In this document: positions 1,661 to 54,028 of the stretch, in pieces
How the letters are laid out: each line of letters starts with the position of its first letter
How positions within the stretch are numbered: the stretch's first letter is position 1
From: Dechloromonas sp.
GTDB lineage: Bacteria; Pseudomonadota; Gammaproteobacteria; Burkholderiales; Rhodocyclaceae
DNA: 54,163 bases
Direction of reading: 5' to 3'
NCBI GenBank assembly: GCA_016790815.1
Contig: JAEUOG010000049.1
Coordinates: 1 to 54,163, forward strand
Translations under genes and position numbers: made by a program
Notes under the pieces: generated by a model
Database searches by the model: none
What the model was told of the DNA's origin: nothing
What the model saw: only the letters and a program-made list of their open reading frames with translations

Positions 1661-1701
1661 GCTTGCTACGGTCAACCGGAAAAAATGGCCAGAATCAAAG
1701 C
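1661..1701 (+). repeat. Interspersed repeat copy R1 (CGGTCAACCGGAAA family)
   Basis: The core CGGTCAACCGG starts at 1669 and is followed by an A-run and GGCC at 1687-1690. It lies between the MATE and FAH-family genes. The 20 bases TTGCTACGGTCAACCGGAAA are shared exactly with copy R6 inside hrpA, more than 50 kb away. Confidence 0.8.
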
Positions 1702-1792
1702 GGGCCGCGACGGCATCCTTGATTCAACAAAAGCCAATGTGGTACCGGACCGAAGTTTTCAGCATGCCCGCGCTTACCCGAGAAATTCCGTC

Positions 1793-2494
1793 TCAGACTA
1801 TCCGGGCACGCAAGGAAGCAACGCCCTCCACTGCCGCCGCCAGCACATCGCCCCGCACCAGCGGACCAACGCCGGCAGGTGTGCCCGTGTAGATCAGGTC
1901 GCCGGCCTCCAGCCGAACCAGCGTGGACAGGTTGGCGATAATCTCGGGCACTTTCCACATCATGGCCGACAGGTCGCCGTCCTGCCGTAGCTGCCCATTC
2001 ACCATCAGGCTGACTCGGCCACTGGCGGGGTACCCGCAGACGGCCACCGGGCAAATCGCGCCGGACACGGCCGACTGATCGAAACCCTTGCTCATGTCCC
2101 AAGGATGGCCCTTTTCCTTGGCCTTCGCCTGCATGTCGCGACGCGTCAGATCGAGGCCGACGGCGTAGCCAAAAATCAGGCTGTTTGCCGCGTCGACCGC
2201 AACATTTGCCCCGCCTGCGCCGAGAGCAACGACCATTTCCACCTCATGATGAAGATTGGCCGTCTGCGGCGGATAGATCACACTGACCTCATCATCGCCC
2301 CCAACAACCGCATCGCCCGGTTTACTGAAGAAAAATGGCGGCTCGCGCCCCTCCGCCTGTTCCAAAGCCCCCATTTCGCGGGCATGGTCGGCGTAGTTTC
2401 GGCCGACGCAAAAAATCCGCCGAACCGGAAAGCGCAGATCACTCCCGGCAATGGGCAGAGTAGCGACGGGATGGGGTTGAAAAACAAGGTTCAT
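1793..2494 (-). CDS. Fumarylacetoacetate hydrolase family protein
   Basis: The product has 233 residues, which fits the compact FAH-fold enzymes (YcgM, FAHD1-like) rather than eukaryotic FAH. Visible motifs are FCVGRNYADHA near the N-terminus, the metal-binding HHEVEMVVALG, GLDLTRRDMQ and the C-terminal YTGTPAGVGPL. Family members are Mg/Mn-dependent hydrolases or decarboxylases acting on acylpyruvates or oxaloacetate; the substrate here is unknown. The ATG at 2494 is chosen because GGAG sits about ten bases upstream and the protein then starts with the family-typical short lead before FPVRRIFCVGRNY. It is divergent from the FimV-like gene, with 113 bp between the starts. Confidence 0.85.
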   Translation of the reverse strand: MNLVFQPHPVATLPIAGSDLRFPVRRIFCVGRNYADHAREMGALEQAEGREPPFFFSKPGDAVVGGDDEVSVIYPPQTANLHHEVEMVVALGAGGANVAVDAANSLIFGYAVGLDLTRRDMQAKAKEKGHPWDMSKGFDQSAVSGAICPVAVCGYPASGRVSLMVNGQLRQDGDLSAMMWKVPEIIANLSTLVRLEAGDLIYTGTPAGVGPLVRGDVLAAAVEGVASLRARIV

Positions 2495-2607
2495 CGGATA
2501 GCTCCGGAATCGATGGTCAAGACGCAAAGTGTGCAACATTTCGGCCTTCACCGACCAGCCCGGTGTTAAAGTTTTGGCCTCGGGGAACACATTGACATAG
2601 AAACAGG

Positions 2608-3660
2608 ATGATCGCTTCACGACTGCTGCGCCACGGACTTCTGAGCGCGGCGATATTTTCAGGTGCTGCCAGCGCCGTCGGACTCGGCGAAATCAGCCTG
2701 CATTCACGCATCGGTGAGCCACTGCGCGCCGACATCCCGGTCATTTCGGGCGGCGAATTGCTGGACGCCGCGTGTTTTTCCCTGGCCCCGCTTCCCGGCG
2801 CCGACTTTCCAGTTATCACCAGCGCCCGTACCCGGCTGATTCGCATCGGCCAGGACTACCGCCTCATTCTTACCGGCAGCAAGACCATCGATGAACCAGT
2901 AGTCGCCATCAACCTGCGCGCTGGATGCGGCATCGACTTGCAGCGTGAATACGTTCTGCTACCGGCGCCACCGCTCACCCCCTCACCCCGCGACATCGAG
3001 CCGCCCTTGGTGGCAGGAGATCCCATGCCGCGCGAGGCACCTCCTCCCTGGGTCCGCGCCGAACGTTACAGCGAAAGCAGGGAAGGCGATGGTGGCGTGC
3101 AGCATTTCCCGGAAGCAAAACCCCGCCAGCCCGCAACCCGGGCTGTCGGGGCAGCCAAGCCCAAGAAGCCGCTACCGCGCGAAACGCTCGCCGGCATTGC
3201 CGACGGCAGGGACCGGATCGTCCTCGGCGCCGCGCTCAACGACTTGCCCCCACCTGCTGCCGGCGATCCGCTTGCCCCCGCCAACGAAATTGGCGAACGC
3301 CTGTTGAAGATGGAAACAACGCTGCACCTGCTCAATCAGGAAGTCGACAAGCTGAGTAGCGCAGCCGCGCTGGGTGCCGAATCGCGCGCAATACAGGACA
3401 AAATTCAAGATCTGCAAGCCCAGCAGTCTGTGCCCGGCGTTCTGCCCAGCGCCCAGGCTGCCATGCAGCAGGCACCGATCAAAAGCAGTTCAAACACCAG
3501 TGGCTGGACCGAGCTGCTGCTCGGCCTTCTGCTCGGCGGCAGTGTTTCAGCCGGCGTCGCCCACCTCGTGAGCCGCCGGCAGGACAAGGCGCGCATGAAC
3601 CACACATTGGCCCGCCAAATTGCCAAGCCAGCAGAGCGACGCCGCCCGATAACCGGCTAA
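2608..3660 (+). CDS. Short FimV-like protein with N-terminal FimV domain
   Basis: This 350-residue exported protein starts with a signal peptide (MIASRLLRHGLLSAAIFSGA) followed by GLGEISLHSRIGEPLRADI, the hallmark of the FimV/HubP N-terminal domain. About residues 90-225 are Pro-rich and low complexity. Residues about 230-275 look like a coiled coil (LLKMETTLHLLNQEVDKL), and about 300-320 form a single membrane segment (WTELLLGLLLGGSVSAGVA) before a basic tail. In the family, FimV/HubP organises the cell pole and type IV pilus assembly. Full-length FimV has a LysM domain and a long acidic C-terminal TPR part; both are absent here. It is not next to pilus genes, so the role is open. The Shine-Dalgarno sequence is weak. 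Confidence 0.7.
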   Translation: MIASRLLRHGLLSAAIFSGAASAVGLGEISLHSRIGEPLRADIPVISGGELLDAACFSLAPLPGADFPVITSARTRLIRIGQDYRLILTGSKTIDEPVVAINLRAGCGIDLQREYVLLPAPPLTPSPRDIEPPLVAGDPMPREAPPPWVRAERYSESREGDGGVQHFPEAKPRQPATRAVGAAKPKKPLPRETLAGIADGRDRIVLGAALNDLPPPAAGDPLAPANEIGERLLKMETTLHLLNQEVDKLSSAAALGAESRAIQDKIQDLQAQQSVPGVLPSAQAAMQQAPIKSSSNTSGWTELLLGLLLGGSVSAGVAHLVSRRQDKARMNHTLARQIAKPAERRRPITG

Positions 3661-3701
3661 GGTAGCCCACTACCCCGGAGTGCTCGGCAACACGATCGGC
3701 G

Positions 3702-4448: not shown

Positions 4449-4461
4449 CGAGACACTTTCC

Positions 4462-5616: not shown

Positions 5617-5619
5617 GCC

Positions 5620-6423: not shown

Positions 6424-6432
6424 CTGGCTGTT

Positions 6433-7251
6433 CTACAGCTTGCGGAACTGCTCTTCCGCCTGGTCCATCTCGGATTCCATTTTTGCATCATTTTCCGGGT
6501 TAACCGCAGGAGTCGCCTCCACCGGCGCCGGACGCGACACCAGCCGCGAAGCCAGAATACCCAACTCGTACAGCAGGCACATGGGGATGGCCAGAGCCAG
6601 TTGCGACACCACGTCGGGCGGCGTCACCACGGCAGCAACGACAAAGGCACCGACGATGAAATAGGAGCGCCACTCTTTGAGCTTTTCGACGGTCACGACG
6701 TTCAGCTTGACCAGCATGACGAGCGCCACCGGCACCTCAAAAGACAGGCCGAAAGCGAGGAACATGGTCATCACGAACGAAAGATAGGCCTCGATGTCAG
6801 GCGCTGGCGTGATGCTCTTCGGCGCAAAGCTGGCAATGAAGCTGAACACCTGTCCGAACACAAAGAAGTAACAGAAGGCCATGCCGGACATGAACAGCAG
6901 CGTGCTGGAAACAATCAGCGGAATTCCCAGGCGCTTTTCATGCGCGTAGAGCCCCGGCGCGACAAAGGACCAGACCTGATAAAGGATGAATGGCAGGGCG
7001 AGCACGAAGGCGACCATGGCCGTCACCTTGAGCGGTACCATGAAAGGCGTTATGACGCCGATGGCCACCATCTTGGTGCCTTCCGGCAGGGCCTGGGTCA
7101 GCGGTGCAGCGAGAATGTCATAAATCTCGCCGGGGCCAGGATAGATGCAGAGAACACCCAGCACGACTGCAATGGCGATCAGGCTGCGCAACAGGCGGTC
7201 GCGCAGTTCGATCAGGTGCGAGATAAAGGAATCTTCCTGGGGTTCGCTCAT
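6433..7251 (-). CDS. tatC: Sec-independent protein translocase TatC
   Basis: This 272-residue inner-membrane protein has six predicted helices and the TatC signature in its N-terminal region (FISHLIELRDRLLRS), where the conserved Glu contacts the twin-arginine signal. The C-terminal 30 residues are an extra hydrophilic tail rich in Glu and Pro. With TatB it forms the receptor for folded proteins carrying RR signal peptides. Its start overlaps the tatB stop by 4 bases (ATGA), so the two are translationally coupled. The order tatA-tatB-tatC downstream of hinT is common in betaproteobacteria. Confidence 0.97.
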   Translation of the reverse strand: MSEPQEDSFISHLIELRDRLLRSLIAIAVVLGVLCIYPGPGEIYDILAAPLTQALPEGTKMVAIGVITPFMVPLKVTAMVAFVLALPFILYQVWSFVAPGLYAHEKRLGIPLIVSSTLLFMSGMAFCYFFVFGQVFSFIASFAPKSITPAPDIEAYLSFVMTMFLAFGLSFEVPVALVMLVKLNVVTVEKLKEWRSYFIVGAFVVAAVVTPPDVVSQLALAIPMCLLYELGILASRLVSRPAPVEATPAVNPENDAKMESEMDQAEEQFRKL

Positions 7252-7613: not shown

Positions 7614-7657
7614 GATTTGAAAGTCGTATCAATGAACGGGATACCCCGTCCGAGAGA

Positions 7658-7891: not shown

Positions 7892-7901
7892 GATTTGTCT
7901 C

Positions 7902-11809: not shown

Positions 11810-12901
11810 ATGAGTCGTTTCTGGAGCCAGGTCGTCCGCGACCTCACCCCCTACGTGCCGGGCGAGCAGCCCAAAATCGCCAATCTGATCAAGCTCAATA
11901 CCAACGAGAACCCGTTTCCGCCATCGCCCAAGGTGCTGGCGGCGATCCAGGCCGAGCTTGGCGACGATGCGGCGCGCCTGCGCCTCTACCCGGACCCGAA
12001 TGCCGATTTACTCAAGGCTGCAGTGGCCAAGCGGCATGCCGTGACGCCGCAACAGGTCTTCATCGGCAACGGATCGGACGAAGTGCTGGCCCACGTTTTC
12101 ATGGCCCTGCTCAAGCACGAGGCGCCGATCCTCTTCCCTGACATCACCTACAGCTTCTACCCGGTGTATTGCGGCCTGTACGGCATCGATTACCGCACCG
12201 TGGCGCTGGCTGACGACTTTTCGATTGATCCGGCCGATTACTGCGGTCAACCGGAAAAATCGGCCAAAAATGAGATCGGCGGCATCATCTTCCCCAACCC
12301 GAACGCACCGACCGGTCGCCTGCTCGGGCTGGCCGCCATCGAGCAGATCCTCCTGGCCAATCCGGATGTCGTTATCGTAGTCGATGAAGCCTACGTTGAT
12401 TTTGGCGGCGAGACGGCCATTCCGCTCGTCGAACGCTACGACAACCTGCTGGTCGTGTACACGCTGTCCAAGTCGCGTTCGCTGGCCGGCCTGCGCGTCG
12501 GCTTCGCCGTCGGCCATCCGGTGCTGATCGAAGCGCTGGAGCGCGTCAAGAACAGCTTCAACTCCTATCCGCTTGACCGCCTGGCCATCGTCGGCGCCGT
12601 CGCCGCGATGGAAGACGAGGCATACTTCGAGCAATCTTGCCGCGCCGTGATCGCCACCCGCGACACGCTAACCGCCGACCTGCGCGGCCTCGGCTTCGAA
12701 GTCCTTCCTTCGGCCGCCAATTTCATCTTCGCCCGCCACCCGCTGCGCGACGCGGCCGAACTGGCCAAGGCGCTGCGCGACAAGAGCATCATCGTCCGCC
12801 ACTTCAAGCTGCCGCGCATAGACCAATTTTTGCGCATCACCGTCGGCACCGAGGCACAATGCAAGGCGCTGACGCAAACGCTGCAAGGCATTCTGGCTTA
12901 A
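11810..12901 (+). CDS. hisC: Histidinol-phosphate aminotransferase with repeat-encoded insertion
   Basis: The 363-residue PLP enzyme converts imidazole acetol phosphate and glutamate to histidinol phosphate. Motifs include [44 protein letters not shown] and the PLP-lysine region [17 protein letters not shown]. Residues about 145-155 ([11 protein letters not shown]), just before [13 protein letters not shown], are encoded by interspersed repeat R2 and appear extra compared with related HisC proteins, which pass directly into this strand with only a few residues. This loop is on the surface side of the fold, so activity is probably kept. The gene is on the plus strand although the other his genes here are on the minus strand. 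Confidence 0.94.
12241..12274 (+). repeat. Interspersed repeat copy R2, in frame within hisC
   Basis: The core CGGTCAACCGG starts at 12244 and is followed by AAAAAT, CGGCC and AAAAATGAG. It is read in frame as [10 protein letters not shown]. It matches copy R7 near 54,000 over the core and the GGCCAAA part. Confidence 0.8.
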
Positions 12902-13787: not shown

Positions 13788-14347
13788 TTTCGCCCCAGCT
13801 TCCAGTAGGCGACGCCGCCGGACAGAATCAGCCCGGCGACCATGACCATCGGCATCGGCAAGCGCAGGCCGGCAATGGCAATCACGGTCAACGCTGTAAA
13901 CGGCAGAAAAAACAACTTCTCCTTGATCGCGCCACTCATCCGCCACGCCATGGCAAAGAGCAAACCTACTCCCACAGCGGCAATGCCGCGCAGCATCGAC
14001 TGGGCCAGCGGCAAACTGCCGTAGCGATCGTAAGCTAACGCGAGCAGCAGGACGATGGCAAGCGGCCCGGCCAGCAACCCGATTGGTGCAACGATCGCAC
14101 CGGCAAGGCCTCCGTAGCGCTTGCCGACCACGACAGCAAGGTTGACGACATTCGGCCCGGGGAGAAACTGGCAGAGGCCAAGCTGGGCGTTGAACTCCTC
14201 GGCTGTCATCCAGCGCCGCTCTTCGACAAGCATGCGCCTTGCGAAGGGCAGGACACCACCAAAACCGGATAGCCCAACCGACGAAAATCCCAAAAAAAGC
14301 GCCCGGAGGTCCGGGCGGTTTTGGTTTTTTAAGGCTTCCACGGTCAA
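13784..14347 (-). CDS. chrA: Chromate transporter, first half-size subunit
   Basis: The 187-residue partner carries LFLGFSSVGLSGFGGVLPFARRML and CQFLPGPNVVNLAVVVG, the two hallmark regions of the CHR N-terminal half, plus about five further hydrophobic stretches. The start is uncertain. TTG 14347 and GTG 14341 both fall inside interspersed repeat R3, and no ATG precedes the conserved LRALFLGF. A strong terminator-like hairpin lies within the first 20 codons (14300-14317). The gene begins about 14 bases after hisD ends and interrupts the his locus, which suggests insertion or rearrangement here. Confidence 0.82.
   Translation of the reverse strand: MTVEALKNQNRPDLRALFLGFSSVGLSGFGGVLPFARRMLVEERRWMTAEEFNAQLGLCQFLPGPNVVNLAVVVGKRYGGLAGAIVAPIGLLAGPLAIVLLLALAYDRYGSLPLAQSMLRGIAAVGVGLLFAMAWRMSGAIKEKLFFLPFTALTVIAIAGLRLPMPMVMVAGLILSGGVAYWKLGRK
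14291..14330. terminator. Bidirectional intrinsic terminator inside the 5' end of chrA
   Basis: The arms CGCCCGGA (14300-14307) and TCCGGGCG (14310-14317) form an 8-bp GC stem with a 2-base loop. It is flanked by a seven-A run on the left and GTTTTGGTTTTTT on the right. On either strand the hairpin is followed by a U-rich tract. On the minus strand it lies about 45-60 bases beyond the hisD stop. Confidence 0.75.
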
Positions 14348-14373
14348 CCGGAAATTTCGCTCAATTTTGAAGT
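14332..14373 (+). repeat. Interspersed repeat copy R3 at the hisD/chrA junction
   Basis: The core CGGTCAACCGG is at 14341-14351. Bases 14332-14354 are identical over 23 positions to the complement of 48402-48424 (copy R4). The repeat supplies the hisD stop codon (14361-14363) and its last codons, and also both candidate chrA start codons. Confidence 0.85.
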
Positions 14374-15662
14374 CGGAATTCCGCCGACTTGGCGTGCGCA
14401 GGAAGGCCTTCTCCGTGCGCCAGCGTCGAGGCGATCTTGCCCAGCGTCTGGGAACCGGCCTGCGAGACCTTGATCAGGCTGGTCCGCTTCTGGAAGTCAT
14501 AGACGCCCAGCGGCGAAGAGAAACGCGCACTGCCTGAGGTCGGCAACACGTGATTCGGACCGGCGCAGTAGTCGCCCAGCGCCTCCGACGTGTAGTGACC
14601 GATGAAGATGGCGCCGGCATGGTGAATCTTGCTGACCCAGGGATCGGGATCGGCCAGCGACAATTCGAGGTGCTCCGGCGCAACGCGATTGGCAATGGCC
14701 ACGGCCTCTTCAAGATCGCGCACGAGAATGAATGCGCCACGATTGGTCAGTGAGGTTTCAATGACCTCACGGCGAGGCATGGTCGACAACAGTTTTTCGA
14801 TGCTCGCCTGCACCTTTTCGATATACCTGGCGTCAGTACAGATCAGGATCGACTGCGCCAATTCGTCGTGCTCGGCCTGCGAGAAAAGATCCATCGCCAC
14901 CCAGTCCGGATTGCCGGAGCCATCCGCCAGGACCAGAATTTCCGACGGACCGGCGATCATGTCGATGCCGACGATGCCGAACACCCGACGTTTGGCGCAA
15001 GCCACGTAGGCGTTACCAGGGCCGACGATTTTGTCCACCTGCGGAATAGTCGCCGTGCCGTAAGCCAGCGCTCCAACCGCCTGCGCGCCACCGATGGTGA
15101 ATACGCGGTCAACGCCGGCCAGGCAGGCCGCTGCCAGCACCAGCTGGTTCTTCTCGCCACCCGGCGTGGGCACGACCATGATCAGCTCCTTGACGCCAGC
15201 CACCTTGGCCGGAATCGCGTTCATCAACACGGACGACGGATAAGCCGCCTTGCCTCCCGGAACGTAGAGGCCGACGCGGTCGAGCGGCGTGATCATCTGG
15301 CCGAGCATGGTGCCGTCGGCTTCGGTGTAGGACCAGCCTTCGAGCTGCTGCTTTTCGTGATAAACACGGACACGATGCGCCGCGGCTTCCAGCGCCTGAC
15401 GCTGTTCGGCCGGCAGGCTGTCGAGCGCCTTCTGCATTTCGGCCATGGACAGCTCCAGATCGGCCATGCCAGAAACCGACAGCCTGTCGAATTTGTTGCT
15501 GTACTCAACAACCGCAGCATCACCGCGCGCCTTCACATCGGCCAGAATGCCGATGACCGTGCGCTCGATGCCTTCATCCTGCGCCGCTTCGAACGCGAGC
15601 AACGCATCCATTTTTGCCTTGAAGTCGGCGTCGACCGTGGAAAGACGTTTGATCGCGACCAT
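14361..15662 (-). CDS. hisD: Histidinol dehydrogenase HisD
   Basis: The 433-residue enzyme oxidises histidinol to histidine with two NAD+. Motifs include [48 protein letters not shown], the Zn-site region [13 protein letters not shown], and [21 protein letters not shown] near the C-terminus. The length is typical. The last residues (RLQN) and the TGA are contributed by repeat R3. It begins 5 bases after hisG ends, so hisG-hisD form an operon. The usual next gene, hisC, has been turned round and displaced to about 1.5 kb away. Confidence 0.96.
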
Positions 15663-16312: not shown

Positions 16313-16381
16313 GGGTTATCTCGTGGCAAAAGAAGGATTTTACCGCAAAGCCAGCCTCAAAGCGGCCGGCCACAAAAGCAA

Positions 16382-16403
16382 AAAGCCCGGCAAGCCGGGC
16401 TTT
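16382..16403 (-). terminator. Intrinsic terminator of the cold-shock gene
   Basis: AAAGCCCGGC and GCCGGGCTTT form a perfect 10-bp stem around a 2-base loop. On the minus strand it is followed by TTGCTTTTG, and it lies 24 bases downstream of the csp stop. It separates csp from hisG. Confidence 0.85.
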
Positions 16404-16427
16404 CTTGAGTCAGGCGACTCCGCGGAC

Positions 16428-16634
16428 TTATTCAGCCGGGCGGATGTTTGCAGCCTGCTTGCCCTTCGGGCCGTTCACGACATCGAACGTCACTTTCTGG
16501 TTCTCGGCCAGGGTCTTGAAACCATTGCCTTGGATTGCAGAGAAGTGAGCGAAGAGGTCTTCACCACCTTCGGACGGGGAGATGAAACCGAAACCCTTGG
16601 AGTCGTTGAACCACTTAACGGTACCGTTTGCCAT
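16428..16634 (-). CDS. Cold-shock domain protein (CspA family)
   Basis: The 68-residue single CSD protein starts [20 protein letters not shown] and contains the RNA-binding RNP1 (KGFGFI) and the RNP2-like stretch [11 protein letters not shown]. It binds single-stranded RNA/DNA and acts as an RNA chaperone; whether it is cold-induced or constitutive is not visible. About 220 bases separate it from murA, leaving room for the long 5' leader common in csp mRNAs. A GGAAGC motif precedes the ATG. It has its own terminator. Confidence 0.95.
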
Positions 16635-16795
16635 TTGATAGCTTCCTAAAATAAATATACGGGCTTGCGCCACAAAAACACGAGAACCAAGACCGAGGAG
16701 AGCTGACAAACCGTGGTACGGCGCAGGAACAAAACACTGCCTGGAAATCCCGAGGCTCGGAGTATGGGCCAGCAATTGGAATACGCCAAGCATTT
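16635..16795 (-). promoter_or_regulatory. Probable csp promoter and leader region
   Basis: This is the non-coding stretch upstream of the csp start, between the perfect inverted repeat and the gene. It is consistent with the promoter and the structured leader usually found before csp genes. I could not assign -35/-10 boxes with confidence. Confidence 0.35.
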
Positions 16796-19832: not shown

Positions 19833-20114
19833 TCAGGCGAGAGGCAGCAATTCAGTAACGCCGTATAGCTCCGCCAGCGACACAACGCCCTCGGGAATAT
19901 GGGCAAATTTTACGGTTGACCGCGACAGACTGGCTGCTCGCAGCCACCCGAGCATCACCGCAAGCGCGGATGAGTCAGCCTCCTTGACCTCCGAGAAGTC
20001 AATGATTTGCTCGCCCGGCTGCAAAGCAGAACGGCCTGCTTCGAGCAGGCCGCGCGCATTGGTCATCACCAGCGGCACCTTGACGACAAGGCACCCCTTT
20101 TCACGTTCGATCAT
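19833..20114 (-). CDS. mlaB: STAS-domain protein MlaB
   Basis: The 93-residue STAS domain protein has the core VDFSEVKEADSSALAVMLGWLR-type stretch (here IDFSEVKEADSSALAV), with the Asp-Ser-Ser motif, and ends with SLAELYGVTELLPLA as in other MlaB proteins. MlaB binds the MlaF ATPase and stabilises the MlaFEDB complex that moves phospholipid across the periplasm. It overlaps mlaC by 4 bases. A degenerate copy (R8) of the interspersed repeat may lie inside the gene without changing its length. Confidence 0.88.
   Translation of the reverse strand: MIEREKGCLVVKVPLVMTNARGLLEAGRSALQPGEQIIDFSEVKEADSSALAVMLGWLRAASLSRSTVKFAHIPEGVVSLAELYGVTELLPLA
19897..19926 (-). repeat. Degenerate candidate repeat copy R8 inside mlaB
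   Basis: The stretch ATGGGCAAATTTT followed by ACGGTTGACCGCG matches the complement of the repeat core with mismatches. It encodes ordinary-length MlaB sequence, so chance similarity remains possible. Confidence 0.35.
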
Positions 20115-29605: not shown

Positions 29606-31312
29606 ATGAGCGCCTCCACCCTCCAGCGCCGCCCTCTCGGCCAGATACTGATTTCCGAAGGCATCCTGTCGGAAGATCAGTTGCGTATCGCGCTGCTGGA
29701 GCAAATGAAGCAGAACCAGCCGATCGGCAAGCTGCTGGTTTCGCTGGGCTTCGTCACCGAGGCCACCCTGCGCCAGGCGCTCTCCGAAAACCTCGGCAAA
29801 CAGAGCATCGACCTGTCGCATGCCGTCGTCGACCCGCAAGCGCTCAAGCTAGTCCCGCGCGACCTCGCCAAACGCCACCACCTGCTGCCGCTTGACTACG
29901 ACCGTCACAACCGCCGCCTGACGCTGGCCATTTCGGACATCAACGACATCGTTGGTCTCGACCGTGTCCGCGGTCAACTGGAAGAAGGTACCGAAATCGA
30001 AACGCTGCTCGGCGGCGAATCCGAAATCGATCACGCCATCGACCAGTATTACGGTCACGAACTGTCGATTGACGGCATCCTGCACGAGATCGAAACCGGC
30101 GAAATCGACTGGCAGAGCCTGTCCACAACCGACGATGAGTACAGCCAGCCGGTCGTCCGGCTGATCGACTCGATTCTGACCGACGCAGTCAAGCGCGAAG
30201 CCTCGGACATCCATTTCGAACCCGAAGCCAATTTCCTGCGCATACGCTATCGGATCGACGGCATGCTTCGCCAGATCCGCGCGCTGCACAAATCCTACTG
30301 GCCGGCAATGACGGTGCGCATGAAAGTGCTTTCCGGCATGAATATCGCCGAGATGCGGGCGCCGCAGGATGGGCGGATCAGCCTCACCGTTTCAGGTCGC
30401 CCCATCGACTTCCGGGTCGCCAGTCAGCCGACCATTCACGGCGAAAACATCGTGCTGCGCATTCTCGACCGGCAGAAGGGAATAGTGCCGCTGGACAATC
30501 TCGGGCTGGCCGAGGAGCACCTGCACCAGCTCAAACTCATGATCTCGCGGCCCGAAGGCATCATCCTCGTCACCGGCCCGACCGGCAGTGGCAAGACGAC
30601 GACGCTCTACTCGGTGCTCAACCACATCAACTCCGAGGGCATTCACATCATGACCCTCGAAGATCCGGTCGAATACCCGATGGCGATGGTCCGCCAGACA
30701 TCGGTTTCGGAAACGGCCAAGCTGGATTTCGCCAACGGCATCCGCTCGATGATGCGCCAGGACCCGGACGTCATCCTGGTCGGCGAAGTACGCGATGCGG
30801 AAACCGCCGAAATGGCCTTTCGAGCTGCCATGACCGGTCATCAGGTGTACACCACCTTGCATACGAATTCGGCCATTGGCGCCGTCCCGCGCCTGCTCGA
30901 CATCGGTGTTCTCCCCGACGTGATGGCTGGCAACATCATCGGCATCGTCGCCCAGCGCCTGATTCGTCGACTGTGCGACCACTGCAAATCGCCCTATCAC
31001 GCGGAACCCCACGAAATACGCCTGCTCTGTGAGCTGGGTGAGGGTCCGCGCCCTGTTCTGTTCCGCCCTACCGGCTGTGAGGCATGTGATTTCCAGGGTT
31101 ACCGGGGCCGCATCGCCATCATGGAATTACTGCGTATCGATGCCGGCATCGACGAACTCATTGCGCGTCGCGCGACTACCCATGAGATCCGCTCGCGCGC
31201 CCTGCTCCAGGGCTTCACGACGCTGGCCGACGATGGCATGCAGCGCGTACTGAACGGTACGACTTCGCTTGAAGAACTGGCCCGCGTTGTCGACCTGACT
31301 GATCGGATGTAG
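29606..31312 (+). CDS. mshE: MshE-type pilus extension ATPase
   Basis: The 568-residue GspE/PilB-family ATPase has an N-terminal MshEN domain with two tandem 24-residue motifs, starting near LGQILISEGILSEDQL and IGKLLVSLGFVTEATL. Walker A is GPTGSGKT at 324-331, the Asp box DPDVILVGEVRDAET is near 386-400, the His box GHQVYTTLHTN is near 411-421, and the zinc cysteines are C457, C460, C491 and C494. In Vibrio MshE the N-terminal motifs bind c-di-GMP to stimulate pilus extension. Here the usual Arg before Leu-Gly in each motif is Pro, so c-di-GMP binding is plausible but not assured. No PilT retraction ATPase is in the island. Confidence 0.93.
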   Translation: MSASTLQRRPLGQILISEGILSEDQLRIALLEQMKQNQPIGKLLVSLGFVTEATLRQALSENLGKQSIDLSHAVVDPQALKLVPRDLAKRHHLLPLDYDRHNRRLTLAISDINDIVGLDRVRGQLEEGTEIETLLGGESEIDHAIDQYYGHELSIDGILHEIETGEIDWQSLSTTDDEYSQPVVRLIDSILTDAVKREASDIHFEPEANFLRIRYRIDGMLRQIRALHKSYWPAMTVRMKVLSGMNIAEMRAPQDGRISLTVSGRPIDFRVASQPTIHGENIVLRILDRQKGIVPLDNLGLAEEHLHQLKLMISRPEGIILVTGPTGSGKTTTLYSVLNHINSEGIHIMTLEDPVEYPMAMVRQTSVSETAKLDFANGIRSMMRQDPDVILVGEVRDAETAEMAFRAAMTGHQVYTTLHTNSAIGAVPRLLDIGVLPDVMAGNIIGIVAQRLIRRLCDHCKSPYHAEPHEIRLLCELGEGPRPVLFRPTGCEACDFQGYRGRIAIMELLRIDAGIDELIARRATTHEIRSRALLQGFTTLADDGMQRVLNGTTSLEELARVVDLTDRM

Positions 31313-47747: not shown

Positions 47748-48311
47748 ATGAGCAACCCGAATTTCGACCAACTGACTGCCGCCCAAAAAGCCAACGCCGA
47801 AGTCATGACGACCCTGCTGCGCACCGCCTTCGATGGCGTCGAGCGCCTGACCGCCCTGAACATGGCAGCTTCGCGTGAGTTCTTCAACAACACCATGGCC
47901 GGCACCCAGCAGATGCTGAGCGCCAAGGATCCGCAAGCCCTTGCCAAGCTGAACGCCGAACTGGCCCAGCCGAACGCCGCCAAGTGGATGGACTACTCGC
48001 GTAGCGTCTATGAACTGGTTTCCGAAATGCAGAAGGAAGTCACTTCGGTCATGGAAAACCAGTACGGCAGCTTCACCAAGAACATCAATACCGCCGTTGA
48101 AAAGGCCAAGACCTCTGCACCGGTTGGTGGTGACGTTTTCGCCGCCACCATGCAGTCGATGCTGAGCGCCTCGACCAAGGCTTTCGACAACATGACCGGC
48201 ATGGCCAAGCAACTGTCCGACATCGCTGAAGCCAACATGGCCGCTGCCAGCAAGGTTGCCACCCCGGCCAAGAGCGCCACGGCTGCTGCTGCCAAGAAGG
48301 CTGCCAAGTAA
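47748..48311 (+). CDS. phaP: Phasin (second of a tandem pair)
   Basis: The 187-residue phasin begins MSNPNFDQLTAAQKANAEVMTTLLRTAFDGVERLTALNMAASREFF and ends with an Ala/Lys-rich tail. It shares LAQPN, DYSRSVYE and an AFDNM segment with the first phasin, so the pair arose by duplication. I chose ATG 47748 because GGAG at 47738-47741 directly abuts the earlier ATG 47742, and the spacing to 47748 equals that of the first phasin gene. A strong terminator follows. Confidence 0.92.
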   Translation: MSNPNFDQLTAAQKANAEVMTTLLRTAFDGVERLTALNMAASREFFNNTMAGTQQMLSAKDPQALAKLNAELAQPNAAKWMDYSRSVYELVSEMQKEVTSVMENQYGSFTKNINTAVEKAKTSAPVGGDVFAATMQSMLSASTKAFDNMTGMAKQLSDIAEANMAAASKVATPAKSATAAAAKKAAK

Positions 48312-48333
48312 TTCCAGCATTTCATTGCTGACA

Positions 48334-48363
48334 AAAAACCCGCGAGCTTCGCGGGTTTTTTTA
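48334..48363. terminator. Strong bidirectional terminator after the phasin genes
   Basis: CCCGCGA and TCGCGGG form the stem around a GC loop, flanked by six A on the left and seven T on the right. It ends the phasin transcript and could also stop minus-strand transcripts from the convergent gene. Confidence 0.9.
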
Positions 48364-48382
48364 CGTCTGGCGATTCAAGAAT

Positions 48383-48424
48383 TTTGAATTTCGGCCCGTT
48401 TTTCCGGTTGACCGTGGAAGCCTG
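48383..48424 (-). repeat. Interspersed repeat copy R4
   Basis: The core TTTCCGGTTGACCG lies at 48402-48415, preceded by TTTCGGCCC. It sits between the phasin terminator and the MoaB/CinA-domain gene. 48402-48424 is identical over 23 bases to the complement of copy R3. Confidence 0.85.
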
Positions 48425-48434
48425 AAAAAAATGC

Positions 48435-49199
48435 TCAGGGCCGCCAGACCCAGGTGATTCCACGGCTTTCCACTTCGCTGCGGATTTCTTCCATCGCCTT
48501 GTCTACCAGGTCGGGCGCCCCCTCGACCCCAAGCTCCAGATGCTTGCGCTCCTTGCCGACCAGTGACGGCAGCGAGAACAGGCGTAGCGTCGGGTAGTCG
48601 GCGACGATGCGCTCCATCAAATCAAGCAGCGCACTTTCGTAGGCCGTCGGGCCGGTGAGCAGGAAGGCTTTTTCAACCATGCCGCCGACGGCCTTGAACT
48701 GATCCCGATAGAACGTATCGAGCGCCCATTCGATCATCGGGTGCGCCATCTGCGGAAAGCCGGGTACGAAGTAATGGTCGTTGGCCATGAAGCCGGGAAT
48801 GCGGTTGAAGGGGTTGGGGATAATCTGGACGCCGGCCGGAAAAGTGACGAGCAGCTTGCGTTTGTCGGTGATTTCTTCGCCGGCGAAACGGACTTTGAGC
48901 TCCTCGAAGCCTTCCGGGTGCAAGGCCAGATCGACGCCCAGCGCCGCCGCCACGGCCTGCCGCGTGTGGTCGTCCGGCGTGTTGCCGATACCGCCACAGG
49001 AAAACACCACGTCACCAGCCGCCATCGTGCGCCTGAAGGTGGCAGCAAGGCGTTCGCGGTCGTCCGCCAGATATTCGACCCAGCTCAGGCGCAGACCGCG
49101 CGCGGCCAGCAGCTCGGCAATTTTGGCGAAATGCTTGTCCTGCCGTTTGCCCGACAAAATTTCGTCGCCAATGATGACGGCGCCAAAGGTACGGCTCAT
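48435..49199 (-). CDS. MoaB/CinA N-terminal domain protein (molybdopterin-binding fold)
   Basis: The 254-residue protein has the MoCF-type motif FGAVIIGDEILSGKRQDKHF and the CinA/MoaB-like FSCGGIGNTPDDHTRQAVAAAL. FANDHYF-type and VPGFPQMAHPMIEWAL segments follow. It lacks the C-terminal deamidase domain of full CinA. Related single-domain proteins are proposed to act on nicotinamide-derived nucleotides; the substrate here is unknown. The ATG at 49199 overlaps the upstream membrane-protein gene by 4 bases. Confidence 0.82.
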   Translation of the reverse strand: MSRTFGAVIIGDEILSGKRQDKHFAKIAELLAARGLRLSWVEYLADDRERLAATFRRTMAAGDVVFSCGGIGNTPDDHTRQAVAAALGVDLALHPEGFEELKVRFAGEEITDKRKLLVTFPAGVQIIPNPFNRIPGFMANDHYFVPGFPQMAHPMIEWALDTFYRDQFKAVGGMVEKAFLLTGPTAYESALLDLMERIVADYPTLRLFSLPSLVGKERKHLELGVEGAPDLVDKAMEEIRSEVESRGITWVWRP

Positions 49200-49930
49200 A
49201 GTCTCTCTCCCTCGATGGTGACGACCGCCCCGCCGCGTGAGCGGCGCAAGGCTTCCAGGCCGTAATGAACAAATGATAGCGCGGCCAGCGCCGGCACCAG
49301 CAGCCCGACAAAGGGTACGTGAGCGAGCAGGGACATGGTCAGGCCGAGCATGAACAACGGCGTCTTCTGGCCGCTGCGAACCTCCTGCCACTCGCCAGCC
49401 GTTGCGTGCATGGACAGCGCATCGTAGGCAAACGTCCGGCGATTCAGCCAGCCCATCAGCAGCAGCGGAATGAGCAGCGAGAAGCCGGGGATCAGCCACA
49501 GCGGGATGGTAATCAGCCAGCCGAAAATGAACAAAATTGAGGCAAAAATGCTGTTGACCGCAGCAGCGACGAAACTGTCCTTGCCCATCGCTGCCACATC
49601 GCGATATTCGGTCGCCGAAAGGTGCTTGAGCATCAGCGGCATGATGACAATGGCCGCCAGCAACGAGGCTGTCAGGTAGGCGACGGCGAAGATCGCCATC
49701 CAGCCGCCGAGGTAGGCCAGGATATGCGCCAGCCAGACCAGCCCCCAGCCGACGAGCAGGGTCATCGGCGGGAAGTCCATCATTTGCTGCACCATCCAGC
49801 CCAGGCCCCAGATGGCCAGCGCGATGGTCAGCAGAAGCGAGAACAGCGCCGGGGTGAGGACATAGAGCCAGACCTTGCCATTTTTGAGGTTGGCGAAGGT
49901 TCGCGCCAACGCGAGCATGACTTCATTCAT
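49196..49930 (-). CDS. EI24/CysZ-like inner-membrane protein
   Basis: The 244-residue protein has about six hydrophobic stretches and resembles the EI24 domain family: VWLYVLTPALFSLLLTIALAIWGLGW, LAAIVIMPLMLKHLSATEYRDVA, PGFSLLIPLLLMGWLNRRTFAYDALSMHA. E. coli CysZ of this family helps sulfate uptake; many members are uncharacterised and no cys genes are nearby, so I do not assign that role. It begins 5 bases after hrpA ends. Confidence 0.75.
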   Translation of the reverse strand: MNEVMLALARTFANLKNGKVWLYVLTPALFSLLLTIALAIWGLGWMVQQMMDFPPMTLLVGWGLVWLAHILAYLGGWMAIFAVAYLTASLLAAIVIMPLMLKHLSATEYRDVAAMGKDSFVAAAVNSIFASILFIFGWLITIPLWLIPGFSLLIPLLLMGWLNRRTFAYDALSMHATAGEWQEVRSGQKTPLFMLGLTMSLLAHVPFVGLLVPALAALSFVHYGLEALRRSRGGAVVTIEGERL

Positions 49931-49935
49931 TCTCG

Positions 49936-52900
49936 TCACCCATTCTTGATCCCTTCCCATTGTTTCTGCAGCCGCTTGCTCGACACCGGCACCGGCGTCC
50001 GCAACTCCTGCGCGTAGAGGCCGACGCGCAGTTCTTCGAGCAGCCAGCGGAACTGCTCGACCTGCGGATCGAGCGCCCCGAGCTTGGCGAGTTGGATGGC
50101 GCGGCGTTCGTAGTTGGTCCATAGCGGGCCGTATTCGGCCATCAGCTGTGCATCGCGAGCCGGGTTGGCTTTCAGTTTATCGAGGCGCACGACAATCGCC
50201 TTGAAGTAACGCGGGTAGTGCTGCAGGCGCTCGAAAGGCGTGTCGATCAGGAAATTCTTGCCCATCAGCCGCTTGAGTTGCGCCTCGATGTCAGCCACCG
50301 CCGTGCCGTGCGCCTTGAAGGCCGGCAGCTTTTTGATAACGGCCTGCCATTCAGTCAGCACGGTGCCGACCAGCCGGCAGACTTCCTGCATGATCAGTCC
50401 GAGCCGCGCCTTGCTGTCACCGCAACGGCTCTTGAAAGCGTTCGGCGTCGTCGGCAGCGGTTCGGTCAGGCAGGCGCGTTCGAAGGTCAATTCGACGATC
50501 TGCTTTTTCAGGTCGTCGGCGCCGCCCAGCGCCATGTACTGCATGGCCATCTGGCTCAGGCCGGGGATGTTCTTGTCGAAATACTTCACCTGATCGCGGA
50601 ATTGCAGCATGAACAGGCGCAGCAGGCCGGCGCGATGGGCGGCGGCGGCTTCCTCGGCAGAATCGAAAACCTTGAGACTGACGCTCTCGCCGTCGTCGGT
50701 CAGGCCCGGGTAGCCGAGCACGGTTTGCCCGGCCACCGGGACTTCCATGAGCTCGGGCAACTCGCCGAAAGTCCAGTCGGTCAGTTTGGTGAATTCGGAT
50801 GGCGTTTCGTGCAGTTCGGCGAATTCCTGCTTGGCCTCGCGCCCCCACTCGGCGCGCAGGGCGACGAGGCTGCGGTTCATGTCGAGTTGGCGGCCATGCT
50901 CGTCGATCAGCTTGTAGTTCATCGAGAAGTGGGCGGGCAGCGCGTCGGGCCGGAAGGAATCGGGCGTCACGGCCCAGCCACGCGCATTGAGGCCGCGCGC
51001 TTCGAGGATGTGGTCGATCAGCGGCGTGATCAGGCCCTGATTCATCTTCCGATCTGCACCCGCTTGGTTGCCTGCCACGGTCGACAGGAATTCTTCGACA
51101 AATTCGGGCACCGGCACCACTTTCGCCCGAATCTTCTGCGGCAGCGTCTTGATGAGCTGGACGAGCTTTTCCTTGAGCAGCCCGGGCACCAGCCACTCCA
51201 TGCGGAGCACGGGAATCTGGTTGAGCTGGGCCAGCGGCAGGGTCAGCGTCACGCCATCGCGCGGCGAACCGGGCTCGAAGTGGTAGCTCAACGTGTAATC
51301 GACGCCACCGACTTTCAGGTGATGCGGAAAAGCCTCGGTCGTCACGCCGGCCGCCGAGTGACGCATGAGGTCGTCTTTCGACAGGTAGAGCAGCTTCGGC
51401 GTCTCGCGCTCGGCTTCCTTGCGCCAGTGGTCGAAGGTGGCGCCGTTGTGGATGCCCTCGGGGATGATCGAGTCGTAGAAGGCGAAAATCAGTTCGTCGT
51501 CGACCAGCACGTCCTGCCGGCGCTGCTTGTGTTCGAGGTGTTCGATCTCGCGAATCAGCTTCTGGTTGTGCTGGAAGAACGGCCAGCGCTTGGCGAAAGC
51601 CTCGTCGATTTCCTCGCTGACCAGGCCCTGGCGGATGAAGATTTCACGCGATTCGGCTGGCGCCATCGGGCCGTAATGAATGCGCCGTTTCGGGTTGATG
51701 ACCACGCCGTAAAGTGTCGTGCGCTCCCAGCCCGAGACCTGCATCGACTTCTTTTCCCAGTGGGCATCGAAGTACTGGCGCTTGACAAGGTGAGCGCCCA
51801 CTTTCTCCAGCCAGTCCGGTTCGATTCGGGCAACGCAGCGGCCGAACAGGCGCGTCGTCTCGGTGATCTCGGCCGCCATGATCCACTTGCCGGCCTTTTT
51901 TTGCAGCGGTGACGAGGGGTGGATCAGGTAGCGGATGCCACGCGCGCCGAGGTAAAAACCGGATTCGTCGGCCTTGCAGCCGAGGTTGCCGAGCAGGCCG
52001 GCGAGCAGCGCCTGGTGGATGGCGTCGTAGGTGCCGGGCAGATCGTTTTCCTTCCAGCCGCCGTCTTTCTGTCCCATTTCGGTGACCATCGCGTGCAACT
52101 GGCCATGCACCTCACGCCATTCGCGCATCCGCAGGTAGGAGAGGAAATGGGCATGGCAGTTGTCGATCAGCTGCTTGTTGGATTTTTTGTGCTCGACGGC
52201 GTTCTGGAACCAGTTCCACAGCTTCCACCAGCTTAAGAATTCCGATTTCTCGTCGGCGAACAATTTGTGTTTTTCGTCGGCCGCCTGCTGGCGGTCCTGC
52301 GGCCGTTCGCGCGGGTCCTGCGCCGAGAGGCCGGCGGCGATGACCATGACTTCCTTGAGGCAACCCAGATCGCGCGCAGCGACGAGCATGCGGCCGATGC
52401 GCGGGTCGAGCGGCAGCTTGGCCAGCGACGCGCCGATCGGCGTCAGCACGTTGTCGTCGTCGAGCGCGCCGAGTTCCTGCAGCAGCGCGTAACCGTCGGC
52501 AATGGCCTTGGCTGGCGGTGGCTCGATGAACGGGAAGCTCTCGACATCGGTCAGGCGCAGCGACTTCATGCGCAGGATGACGCCGGCCAGGCTGGAACGG
52601 AGGATTTCCGGATCGGTGAACGGTGGGCGGGCGTTGAAATCCGGCTCGTCGTACAGTCGGATGCAGACACCCGCCGCCACCCGGCCGCAACGCCCGGCCC
52701 GCTGCCGCGCCGCCGCCTGCGAGACCTTTTCGATCTGCAACTGCTCGACCTTGTTGCGGTAGGAATAACGCTTGACGCGGGCCAGCCCGGTGTCGATGAC
52801 GTAGCGGATGCCCGGCACGGTGAGCGAGGTTTCGGCCACGTTGGTGGCCAGCACGATGCGCCGCTGCCCACCCGAGGGCTTGAAAATTCGATCCTGATCA

Positions 52901-53919
52901 CCCGCCGACAGACGCGAAAAAAGCGGCAGGATTTCCGGGGCGTGGGCCGACGATAAACCGGGGCGAGCCAGCGCGTGCTTGCGCAAGGCTTCGGCCGCTT
53001 CGCGTATTTCCCGCTCGCCGGGCAGGAAGACGAGGATGTCGCCGCTGCCCAGCCGTGCTACCTCGTCGGCCGCATCGACGATGGCGTCGTAGAGGTCGCG
53101 CTCGTCGTCCTTCTTTTCGAGATCCTCGACCGGCCGGTAACGCACTTCGACCGGGTAGAGGCGACCGGAAACTTCAATAATTGGCGCTTTTTTCCCGTTG
53201 ACCGTGAAATGCGTCGAAAACCGGTCGGCATCGATGGTCGCCGACGTAATGATCACCTTCAAATCCGGCCGTTTGAGCAGCAACTGCTTGAGGTAGCCAA
53301 GAAGGAAATCGATGTTCAGGCTGCGCTCGTGCGCCTCGTCGATGATGATCGCCTCGTAGGCGTTCAAATACGGGTCGGATTGCGATTCGGCGAGCAGGAT
53401 GCCGTCGGTCATCAGCTTGACCCAGCTCTCCGGGCTGGAGCGATCCTGAAAGCGAATCTTGACGCCGACACCGGCGCCAACCTGCGTCTTCAACTCCTGC
53501 GCCAAACGCGTCGCCACGGAACGCGCGGCCAGCCGGCGCGGTTGGGTGTGGCCGATCAGCCCACGCGCGCCGAGCCCGAGATCGAGACAAATCTTCGGCA
53601 GCTGCGTCGTCTTGCCTGAGCCGGTTTCGCCGCAGACGATGACGACCTGATTTTTAACGATCAATTCTGCGATGTCGGCCCGCCGCTCATTGACCGGCAG
53701 GTCGCTCTGAAACTCAGGCTTCGGCAGCCGTGCCCGGCGTTCGGCCACCGCCGCGCGCGAACGCTCGAGCAAGGCAGCCAGATCGGCTTGCAGTTTTTCG
53801 CGTTTATTTCCGGTTGACCGTAGCAATTCGCGCTGCATGCCGCGCAGGCGCTTCTGGTCACTGCTCAAACAAGGGTTTTCGGCGAGTTCGGCGGCGCGGG
53901 CGGGTTTCTCTTGTTTCAT
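49936..53919 (-). CDS. hrpA: DEAH-box RNA helicase HrpA with repeat-encoded insertions
   Basis: The 1327-residue protein matches HrpA along its length: Walker A GETGSGKT (97-104), DEAH at 194-197, SAT motif ITSATID, QRAGRCGR motif VI, the helicase-associated and OB regions, and the long HrpA-specific C-terminus ending DEARVGL-like (EELRVGLYAQEL). HrpA unwinds RNA and has been linked to mRNA processing and stalled-ribosome rescue. Residues 239-244 (TVNGKK) sit between STHF and APIIEVSG, where E. coli HrpA has only two residues; they are encoded by repeat R5. Residues 33-43 near the N-terminus come from repeat R6. Confidence 0.95.
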   Translation of the reverse strand: MKQEKPARAAELAENPCLSSDQKRLRGMQRELLRSTGNKREKLQADLAALLERSRAAVAERRARLPKPEFQSDLPVNERRADIAELIVKNQVVIVCGETGSGKTTQLPKICLDLGLGARGLIGHTQPRRLAARSVATRLAQELKTQVGAGVGVKIRFQDRSSPESWVKLMTDGILLAESQSDPYLNAYEAIIIDEAHERSLNIDFLLGYLKQLLLKRPDLKVIITSATIDADRFSTHFTVNGKKAPIIEVSGRLYPVEVRYRPVEDLEKKDDERDLYDAIVDAADEVARLGSGDILVFLPGEREIREAAEALRKHALARPGLSSAHAPEILPLFSRLSAGDQDRIFKPSGGQRRIVLATNVAETSLTVPGIRYVIDTGLARVKRYSYRNKVEQLQIEKVSQAAARQRAGRCGRVAAGVCIRLYDEPDFNARPPFTDPEILRSSLAGVILRMKSLRLTDVESFPFIEPPPAKAIADGYALLQELGALDDDNVLTPIGASLAKLPLDPRIGRMLVAARDLGCLKEVMVIAAGLSAQDPRERPQDRQQAADEKHKLFADEKSEFLSWWKLWNWFQNAVEHKKSNKQLIDNCHAHFLSYLRMREWREVHGQLHAMVTEMGQKDGGWKENDLPGTYDAIHQALLAGLLGNLGCKADESGFYLGARGIRYLIHPSSPLQKKAGKWIMAAEITETTRLFGRCVARIEPDWLEKVGAHLVKRQYFDAHWEKKSMQVSGWERTTLYGVVINPKRRIHYGPMAPAESREIFIRQGLVSEEIDEAFAKRWPFFQHNQKLIREIEHLEHKQRRQDVLVDDELIFAFYDSIIPEGIHNGATFDHWRKEAERETPKLLYLSKDDLMRHSAAGVTTEAFPHHLKVGGVDYTLSYHFEPGSPRDGVTLTLPLAQLNQIPVLRMEWLVPGLLKEKLVQLIKTLPQKIRAKVVPVPEFVEEFLSTVAGNQAGADRKMNQGLITPLIDHILEARGLNARGWAVTPDSFRPDALPAHFSMNYKLIDEHGRQLDMNRSLVALRAEWGREAKQEFAELHETPSEFTKLTDWTFGELPELMEVPVAGQTVLGYPGLTDDGESVSLKVFDSAEEAAAAHRAGLLRLFMLQFRDQVKYFDKNIPGLSQMAMQYMALGGADDLKKQIVELTFERACLTEPLPTTPNAFKSRCGDSKARLGLIMQEVCRLVGTVLTEWQAVIKKLPAFKAHGTAVADIEAQLKRLMGKNFLIDTPFERLQHYPRYFKAIVVRLDKLKANPARDAQLMAEYGPLWTNYERRAIQLAKLGALDPQVEQFRWLLEELRVGLYAQELRTPVPVSSKRLQKQWEGIKNG
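53171..53207 (-). repeat. Interspersed repeat copy R5, in frame within hrpA
   Basis: The complement reads CACGGTCAACGGGAAAAAAG then CGCC, one base different from the core. It encodes Thr-Val-Asn-Gly-Lys-Lys and lies exactly where HrpA is longer than its E. coli relative. Confidence 0.72.
53788..53828 (-). repeat. Interspersed repeat copy R6, in frame within hrpA
   Basis: The complement contains TTGCTACGGTCAACCGGAAA, identical to copy R1. It encodes Leu-Leu-Arg-Ser-Thr-Gly-Asn-Lys-Arg near the poorly conserved HrpA N-terminus. Confidence 0.82.
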
Positions 53920-53989
53920 TCATCGGTACAGCAAATCGGAATGCCGATTTTACCGCGCCAAAGCAATGCGCCGCTGCCCGCCATCCGGA

Positions 53990-54028
53990 TTACCACGGTC
54001 AACCGGAAATTTTGGCCAAATCTGAAGG
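53990..54028 (+). repeat. Interspersed repeat copy R7 next to a transposase end
   Basis: The core CGGTCAACCGG starts at 53996, followed by AAATT and TTGGCCAAA, and ends in TCTGAAGG just before the transposase stop codon. It is the best match to the full-length pattern. Confidence 0.82.

What the first reader, a model, noticed from the sequence alone, without database searches (positions are those of the whole stretch)
1661..54028. Undescribed short interspersed repeat family (core CGGTCAACCGGAAA), seven copies plus one candidate in 54 kb
Copies lie at about 1661-1701, 12241-12274, 14332-14373, 48383-48424, 53171-53207, 53788-53828 and 53990-54028, in both orientations. Each has a CGGTCAACC(G/C)GGAAA-like core, an A/T-rich stretch, often a GGCC-like block, and sometimes an end near TGAAG. 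Two copies share 23 identical bases (14332-14354 and the complement of 48402-48424), and two others share 20 (near 1664 and near 53823). Chance is very unlikely at this density. Part of the core (CGGT-CA-ACCG) is a short palindrome, and TTTGGCCAAA in one copy is another. I know no named family with this sequence. It resembles REP-type elements in size and spread but has only weak hairpin potential.
Basis: partly seen in the sequence, partly recalled or inferred. Interest (0 to 1): 0.88.

Follow-up and report, generated by a model that had tools for sequence, protein, structure and literature searches.

The report
DNA-uptake-like genome signal in Azonexus
A 38-letter DNA word repeated hundreds of times in some environmental bacteria is not a jumping repeat but mostly grew in place, even inside ordinary genes, as the 'take me up' labels of naturally transformable Haemophilus and Neisseria did; if experiments confirm it, it would be such a label in a bacterial group where I found none reported.

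Summary
The repeat is real and larger than reported: a ~38-nt motif (gAnTnCCA-CGGTCAACCGGAAA-AAWnGGCC-AAAATTGAAAT) with A/T tracts about one helical turn apart. The core has 99 exact copies in the own 2.54-Mb assembly and 215-382 in nine relatives of GTDB genus Azonexus; sampled genomes of other genera have 0-1. It is not REP-like: 7 of 11 high-copy genomes lack any Y1 (RAYT) transposase match. Inside conserved genes, 22 of 27 copies align gap-free with a motif-free relative, and none shows a unit-sized gap; protein identity is 50% at copies versus 87% in control windows. So the motif was mostly built in place, even at the cost of protein changes. Indels are still enriched (5 of 27 versus 10 of 540), and a few intergenic copies look like unit insertions. 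Both strands are used, non-coding gaps are favoured, and several 'dialects' exist, one symmetric. This matches how Haemophilus USS evolved and their layout (core plus phased A/T tracts). Best reading: an uptake signal of natural transformation. Uptake and receptor are untested, competence genes are only partly confirmed (ComEC yes, ComEA not in three carriers), and an intracellular DNA-binding protein is the main rival.

The parts
1661..1701 (+). copy, intergenic, between a MatE-family gene (229-1650 -) and an FAA-hydrolase gene (1793-2620 -)
   Evidence: PWM 49.7 bits; exact core; Pfam
6474..6514 (-). extra, degenerate copy inside ORF 6433-7251 (-)
   Evidence: PWM 23.6 bits; ORF, gene not identified
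12236..12276 (+). copy in frame inside a histidinol-phosphate-aminotransferase-like gene (11810-12901 +); relative G034 is 21 bp (7 codons) shorter here
   Evidence: PWM 53.6 bits; alignments; Pfam Aminotran_1_2; the name hisC is from neighbourhood and recall
14333..14373 (+). copy straddling the stop codon and 3' flank of hisD (14361-15662 -)
   Evidence: PWM 49.4 bits; Pfam Histidinol_dh
19890..19930 (-). copy (one core mismatch) inside a short STAS-like reading frame; gap-free against G034
   Evidence: PWM 16.4 bits, translation; alignment; family name from recall
29963..30003 (+). weak candidate inside ORF 29606-31312 (+)
   Evidence: PWM 12.9 bits; may be chance
48382..48422 (-). copy behind a terminator-like hairpin, between a + reading frame ending at 48311 and a MoCF_biosynth gene (48435-49499 -)
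   Evidence: PWM 56.0 bits; sequence; ORFs; Pfam
53172..53212 (-). copy inside hrpA (49936-53919 -), made by substitution in place
   Evidence: PWM 37.4 bits; hrpA alignment, 18 of 29 other loci gap-free, 11 lack 12 nt; name hrpA from recall
53788..53828 (-). second copy inside hrpA, made by substitution in place
   Evidence: PWM 37.6 bits; hrpA alignment, 27 of 29 other loci gap-free, 2 have 27 nt more
53988..54028 (+). copy upstream of hrpA, intergenic
   Evidence: PWM 51.1 bits; sequence

Best explanation
The repeat is most likely a DNA uptake signal sequence of natural transformation. A surface DNA receptor (a type IV minor pilin in the Neisseria system) would prefer DNA with the CGGTCAACCGGAAA core, the phased A/T tracts helping the duplex bend or melt as it enters. 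Because imported DNA replaces the homologous chromosome stretch, variants closer to the preferred word are taken up more often and spread, so copies build up base by base wherever genes tolerate them. Different species of the genus drifted to different dialects. Shown: the motif, its numbers, its mostly in-place origin, the dialects, the lineage limits, its absence from one foreign island, and ComEC genes. Inferred: that the organism is competent, that uptake is biased, the receptor, and the drive.
For: Copy number: 99 exact in the own genome and 215-382 in nine relatives, reversed control 0 in these; the top over-represented 12-mer in 480 kb of G068 (61 seen, 0.17 expected), nothing comparable in 800 kb of G034. 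PWM >=10 bits: 101 in 480 kb of G068, 0 in 800 kb of G034, 0 in one Markov sequence. In-place origin: 22 of 27 coding copies gap-free against G034, largest gap 7 aa, amino-acid identity 0.50 at copies vs 0.87 in 540 control windows; both hrpA copies gap-free against G034 and G024. In H. influenzae 24% of USS alignments had gaps (PMC1626085, section 7 read); here 19%. Graded excess of 0-3 mismatch forms: 32/34/22/17 vs 0/0/0/4 in one order-3 Markov sequence. Non-coding excess (46 of 101 coding vs 80% expected), convergent gaps richest, strands 56:45, near-Poisson spread. Layout: core plus tracts at +11..16 and +22..27, as in USS (PMC1626085 passages). Dialects A, B and a third form. ComEC family in 51 of 51 good genomes. 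The ~33.7-kb island inside comEC of carrier G002 holds 0 copies where ~7 are expected.
Against: No uptake experiment; no paper found on competence in this genus. The core is palindromic and dialect B symmetric, whereas known uptake sequences are described as not palindromic (PMC1939737 passage); this suits a dimeric intracellular protein. Indels are enriched at copies (5 of 27 vs 10 of 540), gaps with a copy are longer (median +16 vs 0, P=3.6e-4), and one stop/start junction shows a clean ~35-bp difference. ComEC is also present in genomes without the motif, and carrier G002 has its comEC split. PF12836 (HHH_3) matched in 15 of 15 genomes, but the best match of each lies in a frame of 784 aa or more (Tex-like by recall); a second group that could be ComEA is in 12 of 15 and not in carriers G000 (incomplete), G042 (one contig, complete) and G062. 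No dialect-matched receptor emerged from FimT/GspH-like pilins. Accessory runs still hold 28 copies in 197.6 kb.
Confidence: 0.6

Rival explanations
1. The motif is the binding site of an intracellular, probably dimeric DNA-bending protein (nucleoid organiser, segregation, occlusion or replication factor), selected genome-wide.
For: Palindromic CGGT-CR-ACCG core; dialect B symmetric with A/T tracts on both sides; in-place origin also fits any selected site; ComEA not found in three carriers.
Against: It changes proteins at unrelated genes, seems to hold more information than a binding site needs (inference), shows no strand polarity (184 forward, 198 reverse; the first 100 of 184 forward copies fill the first 2.08 of 4.15 Mb), and a related genome has 0 copies in 800 kb.
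Confidence: 0.26
2. A small mobile repeat (REP/MITE-like) inserted as ~35-40-bp units, later shaped by selection.
For: One clean ~35-bp presence/absence site (G068, G051, G042 versus G000, G002, G122, G034), hisC +21 bp against G034, the three shortest gaps longer by 35-61 bp; strong consensus.
Against: 22 of 27 coding copies gap-free, largest gap 7 aa; Y1 transposase absent from 7 of 11 high-copy genomes including the own, incomplete one; gap length changes at 17 intergenic copies range from -93 to +91 with no common unit.
Confidence: 0.07
3. An RNA-level or transcription-terminator element.
For: Convergent gaps are richest in copies (15 in 10.8 kb); two window copies sit beside terminator-like hairpins.
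Against: 46 of 101 copies lie in coding sequence, on either strand (26 same, 20 opposite); no Rfam match at the window copies.
Confidence: 0.04

Closest known systems
Pasteurellaceae uptake signal sequence (USS, Hin- and Apl-types)
   Same: Core followed by two A/T tracts about one turn apart on one side (dialect A); many genomic copies; coding copies formed by substitution; subclade types (PMC1626085 passages and section 7).
   Different: Different and palindromic core; about 38 nt; one dialect is symmetric; betaproteobacterial; uptake not shown; some unit-like insertions.
Neisseriaceae DNA uptake sequence (DUS) dialects
   Same: Several dialects within one bacterial group, very high over-representation (PMC3630211 passages).
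   Different: DUS core GCCGTCTGAA has no flanking motifs (PMC1626085 passage) and is described as not palindromic (PMC1939737 passage); density here is lower (about 1 per 5 kb in G068).
REP elements with RAYT (features from recall)
   Same: Short interspersed repeats, partly palindromic, over-represented between genes.
   Different: No consistent RAYT link, frequent in-frame coding copies, mostly made in place.

Membership tests
DNA uptake sequence (functional class) | Very high genomic over-representation of one word with graded excess of near matches | tested here: met
DNA uptake sequence (functional class) | Copies arise mainly by substitution in pre-existing sequence, not by insertion | tested here: met
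   22 of 27 coding copies gap-free, none with a unit-sized gap; but indels are enriched and some intergenic copies look inserted
DNA uptake sequence (functional class) | Both orientations, no replichore polarity, non-coding excess | tested here: met
   polarity judged from a partial list (first 100 of 184 forward copies of G068)
DNA uptake sequence (functional class) | Dialects following phylogeny | tested here: inconclusive
   10 of 11 dialect A high-copy genomes were in an HrpA tree of 30 rows and cluster, with low-copy G057 nested; G033 and G004 (67 and 41 exact A cores) fall elsewhere; dialect B genomes were not placed
DNA uptake sequence (functional class) | Depleted in foreign DNA | tested here: inconclusive
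   0 in the 33.7-kb G002 island; accessory runs 28 in 197.6 kb vs 59 in 236.7 kb; one island and a partial reference
DNA uptake sequence (functional class) | Competence machinery present | tested here: inconclusive
   ComEC family in 71 of 76 genomes, also in non-carriers; ComEA-like group in 12 of 15, not in carriers G000, G042, G062; full set not tested
DNA uptake sequence (functional class) | Preferential uptake or binding of motif DNA | not testable with these tools
   needs an experiment
Pasteurellaceae USS (by sequence) | AAGTGCGGT or ACAAGCGGT core | tested here: not met
   consensus; cores from PMC1626085
Neisseriaceae DUS (by sequence) | GCCGTCTGAA-type core without tracts | tested here: not met
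   consensus; core from PMC1626085
REP/RAYT | REP-associated tyrosine transposase in carriers | tested here: not met
   PF01797 in 4 of 11 high-copy genomes, absent in 7
Insertion-type MITE | Unit-length gap at empty orthologous sites | tested here: not met
   coding copies; exceptions among intergenic sites

The most novel reading that the evidence does not exclude
A third, independently evolved uptake-signal system, with a palindromic core and, in one dialect, two-fold symmetric phased A/T tracts, implying a dimeric or orientation-blind DNA receptor; it spreads both by substitution drive and by insertion of whole ~35-bp units during transformation, and has split into several dialects within one genus.
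Probability: 0.37. Interest if true: 0.88.

Novelty: new variant of a known kind. Interest (0 to 1): 0.76.

Why it matters
In the papers I saw, uptake sequences are described for two families, Pasteurellaceae and Neisseriaceae (listing and abstracts; passages). A third, unrelated origin that converged on the USS layout (core plus phased A/T tracts), inside a genus that also holds motif-free, low-copy, high-copy and differently spelled species, would be a natural experiment on how uptake specificity starts, drifts and is lost, and would predict competence in environmental bacteria for which I found no report of it.

Tried and rejected
Mobile repeat with RAYT: rejected. Chi/KOPS-like polar motif (names recalled): rejected on strand counts and spread. 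Phage origin: an IMG/VR scan gave 1 contig. Known RNA family: none at the window copies. Receptor candidates among FimT/GspH-like pilins of 8 genomes: divergent proteins, no clean orthologue set, nothing concluded. A first comparison with G034 by DNA alone was too diverged: 20 of 192 copies had spanning alignments (3 gap-free, 0 with a gap of 25 nt or more), so searches replaced it. The printed listing was cut in the middle, so I saw part of it. The first orientation of hrpA loci was wrong and the script stopped, repeated; gap counts there were recounted. The first HrpA tree took wrong reading frames for G033 and G043, repeated. A recalled lead on insertion of very short DNA during transformation was not found in the library. 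Among the 22 gap-free coding alignments, those at 497170, 535656 and 911265 of G068 are weak (low identity or frame end) and could be dropped without changing the picture; 74 of 101 copies were outside this test (7 partly in, 67 outside conserved frames).
Full report
What is there. The seven copies are confirmed, with more in the window: a 41-column weight matrix finds ten at >=10 bits. The core CGGTCAACCGGAAA occurs 99 times (55+, 44-) in the own 2.54-Mb, 76%-complete assembly, reversed control 0. From 188 copies the consensus is gAnTnCCA-CGGTCAACCGGAAA-AAWnGGCC-AAAATTGAAAT, columns -8 to +32, with A/T tracts at +11..16, +22..27 and +29..31, and background composition beyond (the 14-base core was the selection criterion, so only the flanks are independent evidence).

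Who has it. I therefore call the genus Azonexus in the GTDB sense. Of 71 same-genus genomes, nine have 215-382 exact cores, G033 67, G004 41, the rest 0-13; 3 of 48 genomes of other families have one each. With the 22-mer TTCCACGGTCAACCGGAAAWWW and up to 3 mismatches, 11 of 76 genomes (own included, and G122) have 221-642, the next 85. In 241 genomes of other genera of the family the pattern CACGGTCRACCGNNAAWW gave a single match in 5 and none in 236; it would miss other dialects. Dialect B, ACGGTCGACCGTRAAWW, is abundant in G010 (228), G064 (213) and G030 (40), with some palindromic sites counted on both strands, and 0-10 elsewhere. A wide pattern, CGGTCRACNNNRAWWWNNNSCNAAW, also picks out G033 (286) and G120 (148), with 12 of 76 genomes at zero and controls 0-1; in 80 kb of G033 many copies read like TGCTGCGGTCGAC..GAAAAA..GCCAAAATCGAAA. 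Dialect B in G064 is symmetric: A/T tracts lie on both sides of the palindrome in 40 cores chosen by the symmetric 12-mer and oriented by A/T content of one side.

It mostly grew in place. In hrpA the copy at 53788-53828 is gap-free against 27 of 29 other loci (2 have 27 nt more) and the copy at 53172-53212 against 18 of 29 (11 lack 12 nt); both are gap-free against the nearest motif-free relatives G034 and G024. For example GGTCGACCGGCGAAAAACGCGAAAAA in G054 stands against GGTCAACCGGAAATAAACGCGAAAAA in the window, same frame, changed residues. In a 480-kb block of G068, 101 copies score >=10 bits; 0 in 800 kb of G034 and 0 in a Markov sequence (training copies came from other carriers and the own genome). 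Of the 101, 27 lie wholly in reading frames conserved in G034: 22 gap-free, 5 with gaps of 2-7 aa. Identity to G034 is 0.50 at copies and 0.87 in 540 control windows of the same frames; gaps occur in 5 of 27 against 10 of 540. So substitution dominates and protein change is tolerated; indels are over-represented, but no tested coding copy has the 12-13 extra residues of an inserted unit. The same gap test was used to argue that H. influenzae USS are not insertions, with gaps in 24% of alignments (PMC1626085 section 7, read).

Insertion-like cases. Among 171 syntenic gene gaps, the 17 with a copy are longer than in G034 by a median of 16 nt (range -93 to +91) against 0 in the 154 without (P=3.6e-4); the three shortest grew by 35, 57 and 61. 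At one stop/start junction G068, G051 and G042 have ~35 bp with the motif, and G000, G002, G122 and G034 have none. The window's hisC has 21 bp that G034 lacks. Any model must explain both modes; selection for the word would favour either, but no mechanism for unit insertion is shown.

Genomic pattern. In the G068 block 46 of 101 copies are coding (80% expected of random 38-mers), 15 sit in 10.8 kb of convergent gaps, 29 in 51.6 kb of tandem and 11 in 25.1 kb of divergent gaps; strands 56:45; variance/mean per 20 kb 0.87 (gene calls are my own codon-usage predictions). Near matches are in graded excess: 32, 34, 22, 17 at 0-3 mismatches of the 16-mer, against 0, 0, 0, 4 in one Markov sequence and 0, 0, 1, 20 in 800 kb of G034. 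Runs of at least four genes without a G034 partner hold 28 copies in 197.6 kb, the rest 59 in 236.7 kb (partners outside the 400-kb G034 block were invisible).

Competence. ComEC (PF03772) is found in 71 of 76 genomes and 51 of 51 good ones, as an 811-aa open frame in the own genome; in motif-free G034 it falls in two overlapping pieces, which suggests a frameshift. HHH_3 (PF12836) matches in 15 of 15 genomes tested, but the best match of each lies in a frame of 784 aa or more (Tex-like by recall); a second group (68-87 bits) that could be ComEA occurs in 12 of 15, not in carriers G000, G042 and G062. G042 is complete in one contig, so this counts against the uptake reading there unless its ComEA is too diverged. 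In carrier G002 comEC is split by ~33.7 kb of foreign DNA without the motif, where about 7 copies are expected. These facts allow competence but do not prove it.

Phylogeny. In an HrpA tree of 30 rows the ten dialect A high-copy genomes included (G055 was in two pieces and left out) fall with low-copy G057 in one clade (97/96), next to G034 and G024; G033 and G004 are elsewhere. G057 keeps one strong hrpA copy and few others: loss or gene import, undecided.

Reading. Uptake drive explains in-place growth in unrelated genes, a strong consensus with graded near matches, both strands, non-coding preference, dialects and absence from the island. The palindromic core and symmetric dialect are unlike USS and DUS, and together with the missing ComEA matches they keep an intracellular dimeric DNA-binding protein open as the main rival. 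In print: three papers hold the core strings and none is on this topic by title, none holds the dialect B string, none joins 'DNA uptake sequence' with Rhodocyclales or 'uptake sequence' with Rhodocyclaceae, the one hit for Azonexus with 'uptake sequence' is a gonococcal pilus paper (listing only), and the betaproteobacterium Verminephrobacter paper only suggests sequence-limited uptake and refers to the two known families (PMC4212676 passages). PMC3630211, PMC1939737 and PMC12616744 were seen as passages only.

Noticed in passing
G002:C33:109608-143311 (L282-L283) and G043:C1 about 2218685-2251163 (L284-L285): Related ~33-kb islands sit at the same site inside comEC in two species (aligned pieces 71-90% alike); the first ORF of the G002 one looks like a recombinase (by eye). 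This may be repeated targeting of a competence gene by an integrative element.
   Followed up: partly
G034:C1:1959178-1959913; G007:C10 and C17: comEC matches come in two pieces (G034, overlapping; G007, with one TAG inside) in low-copy genomes.
   Followed up: no
G042 and G062: High-copy genomes without a ComEA-like HHH_3 match apart from larger frames.
   Followed up: no
window 16377-16773 (-): Rfam match to the cspA thermoregulator (RF01766, 91 bits).
   Followed up: no
hisC of G042 (L251 region): A further 27 bp is present just before the motif copy in hisC of G042, not in the five other carriers or G034.
   Followed up: no
hrpA loci L045, L046 (G059, G060): A 27-bp in-frame insertion lies where carriers have the first hrpA copy, without the motif.
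   Followed up: no
L218-L237 (G064): 12-mer AGAGGCGGAGAG occurs 13 times against about 0 expected, perhaps a local tandem repeat.
   Followed up: no
G057: A genome inside the carrier clade by HrpA but with few copies; a possible case of motif loss.
   Followed up: partly
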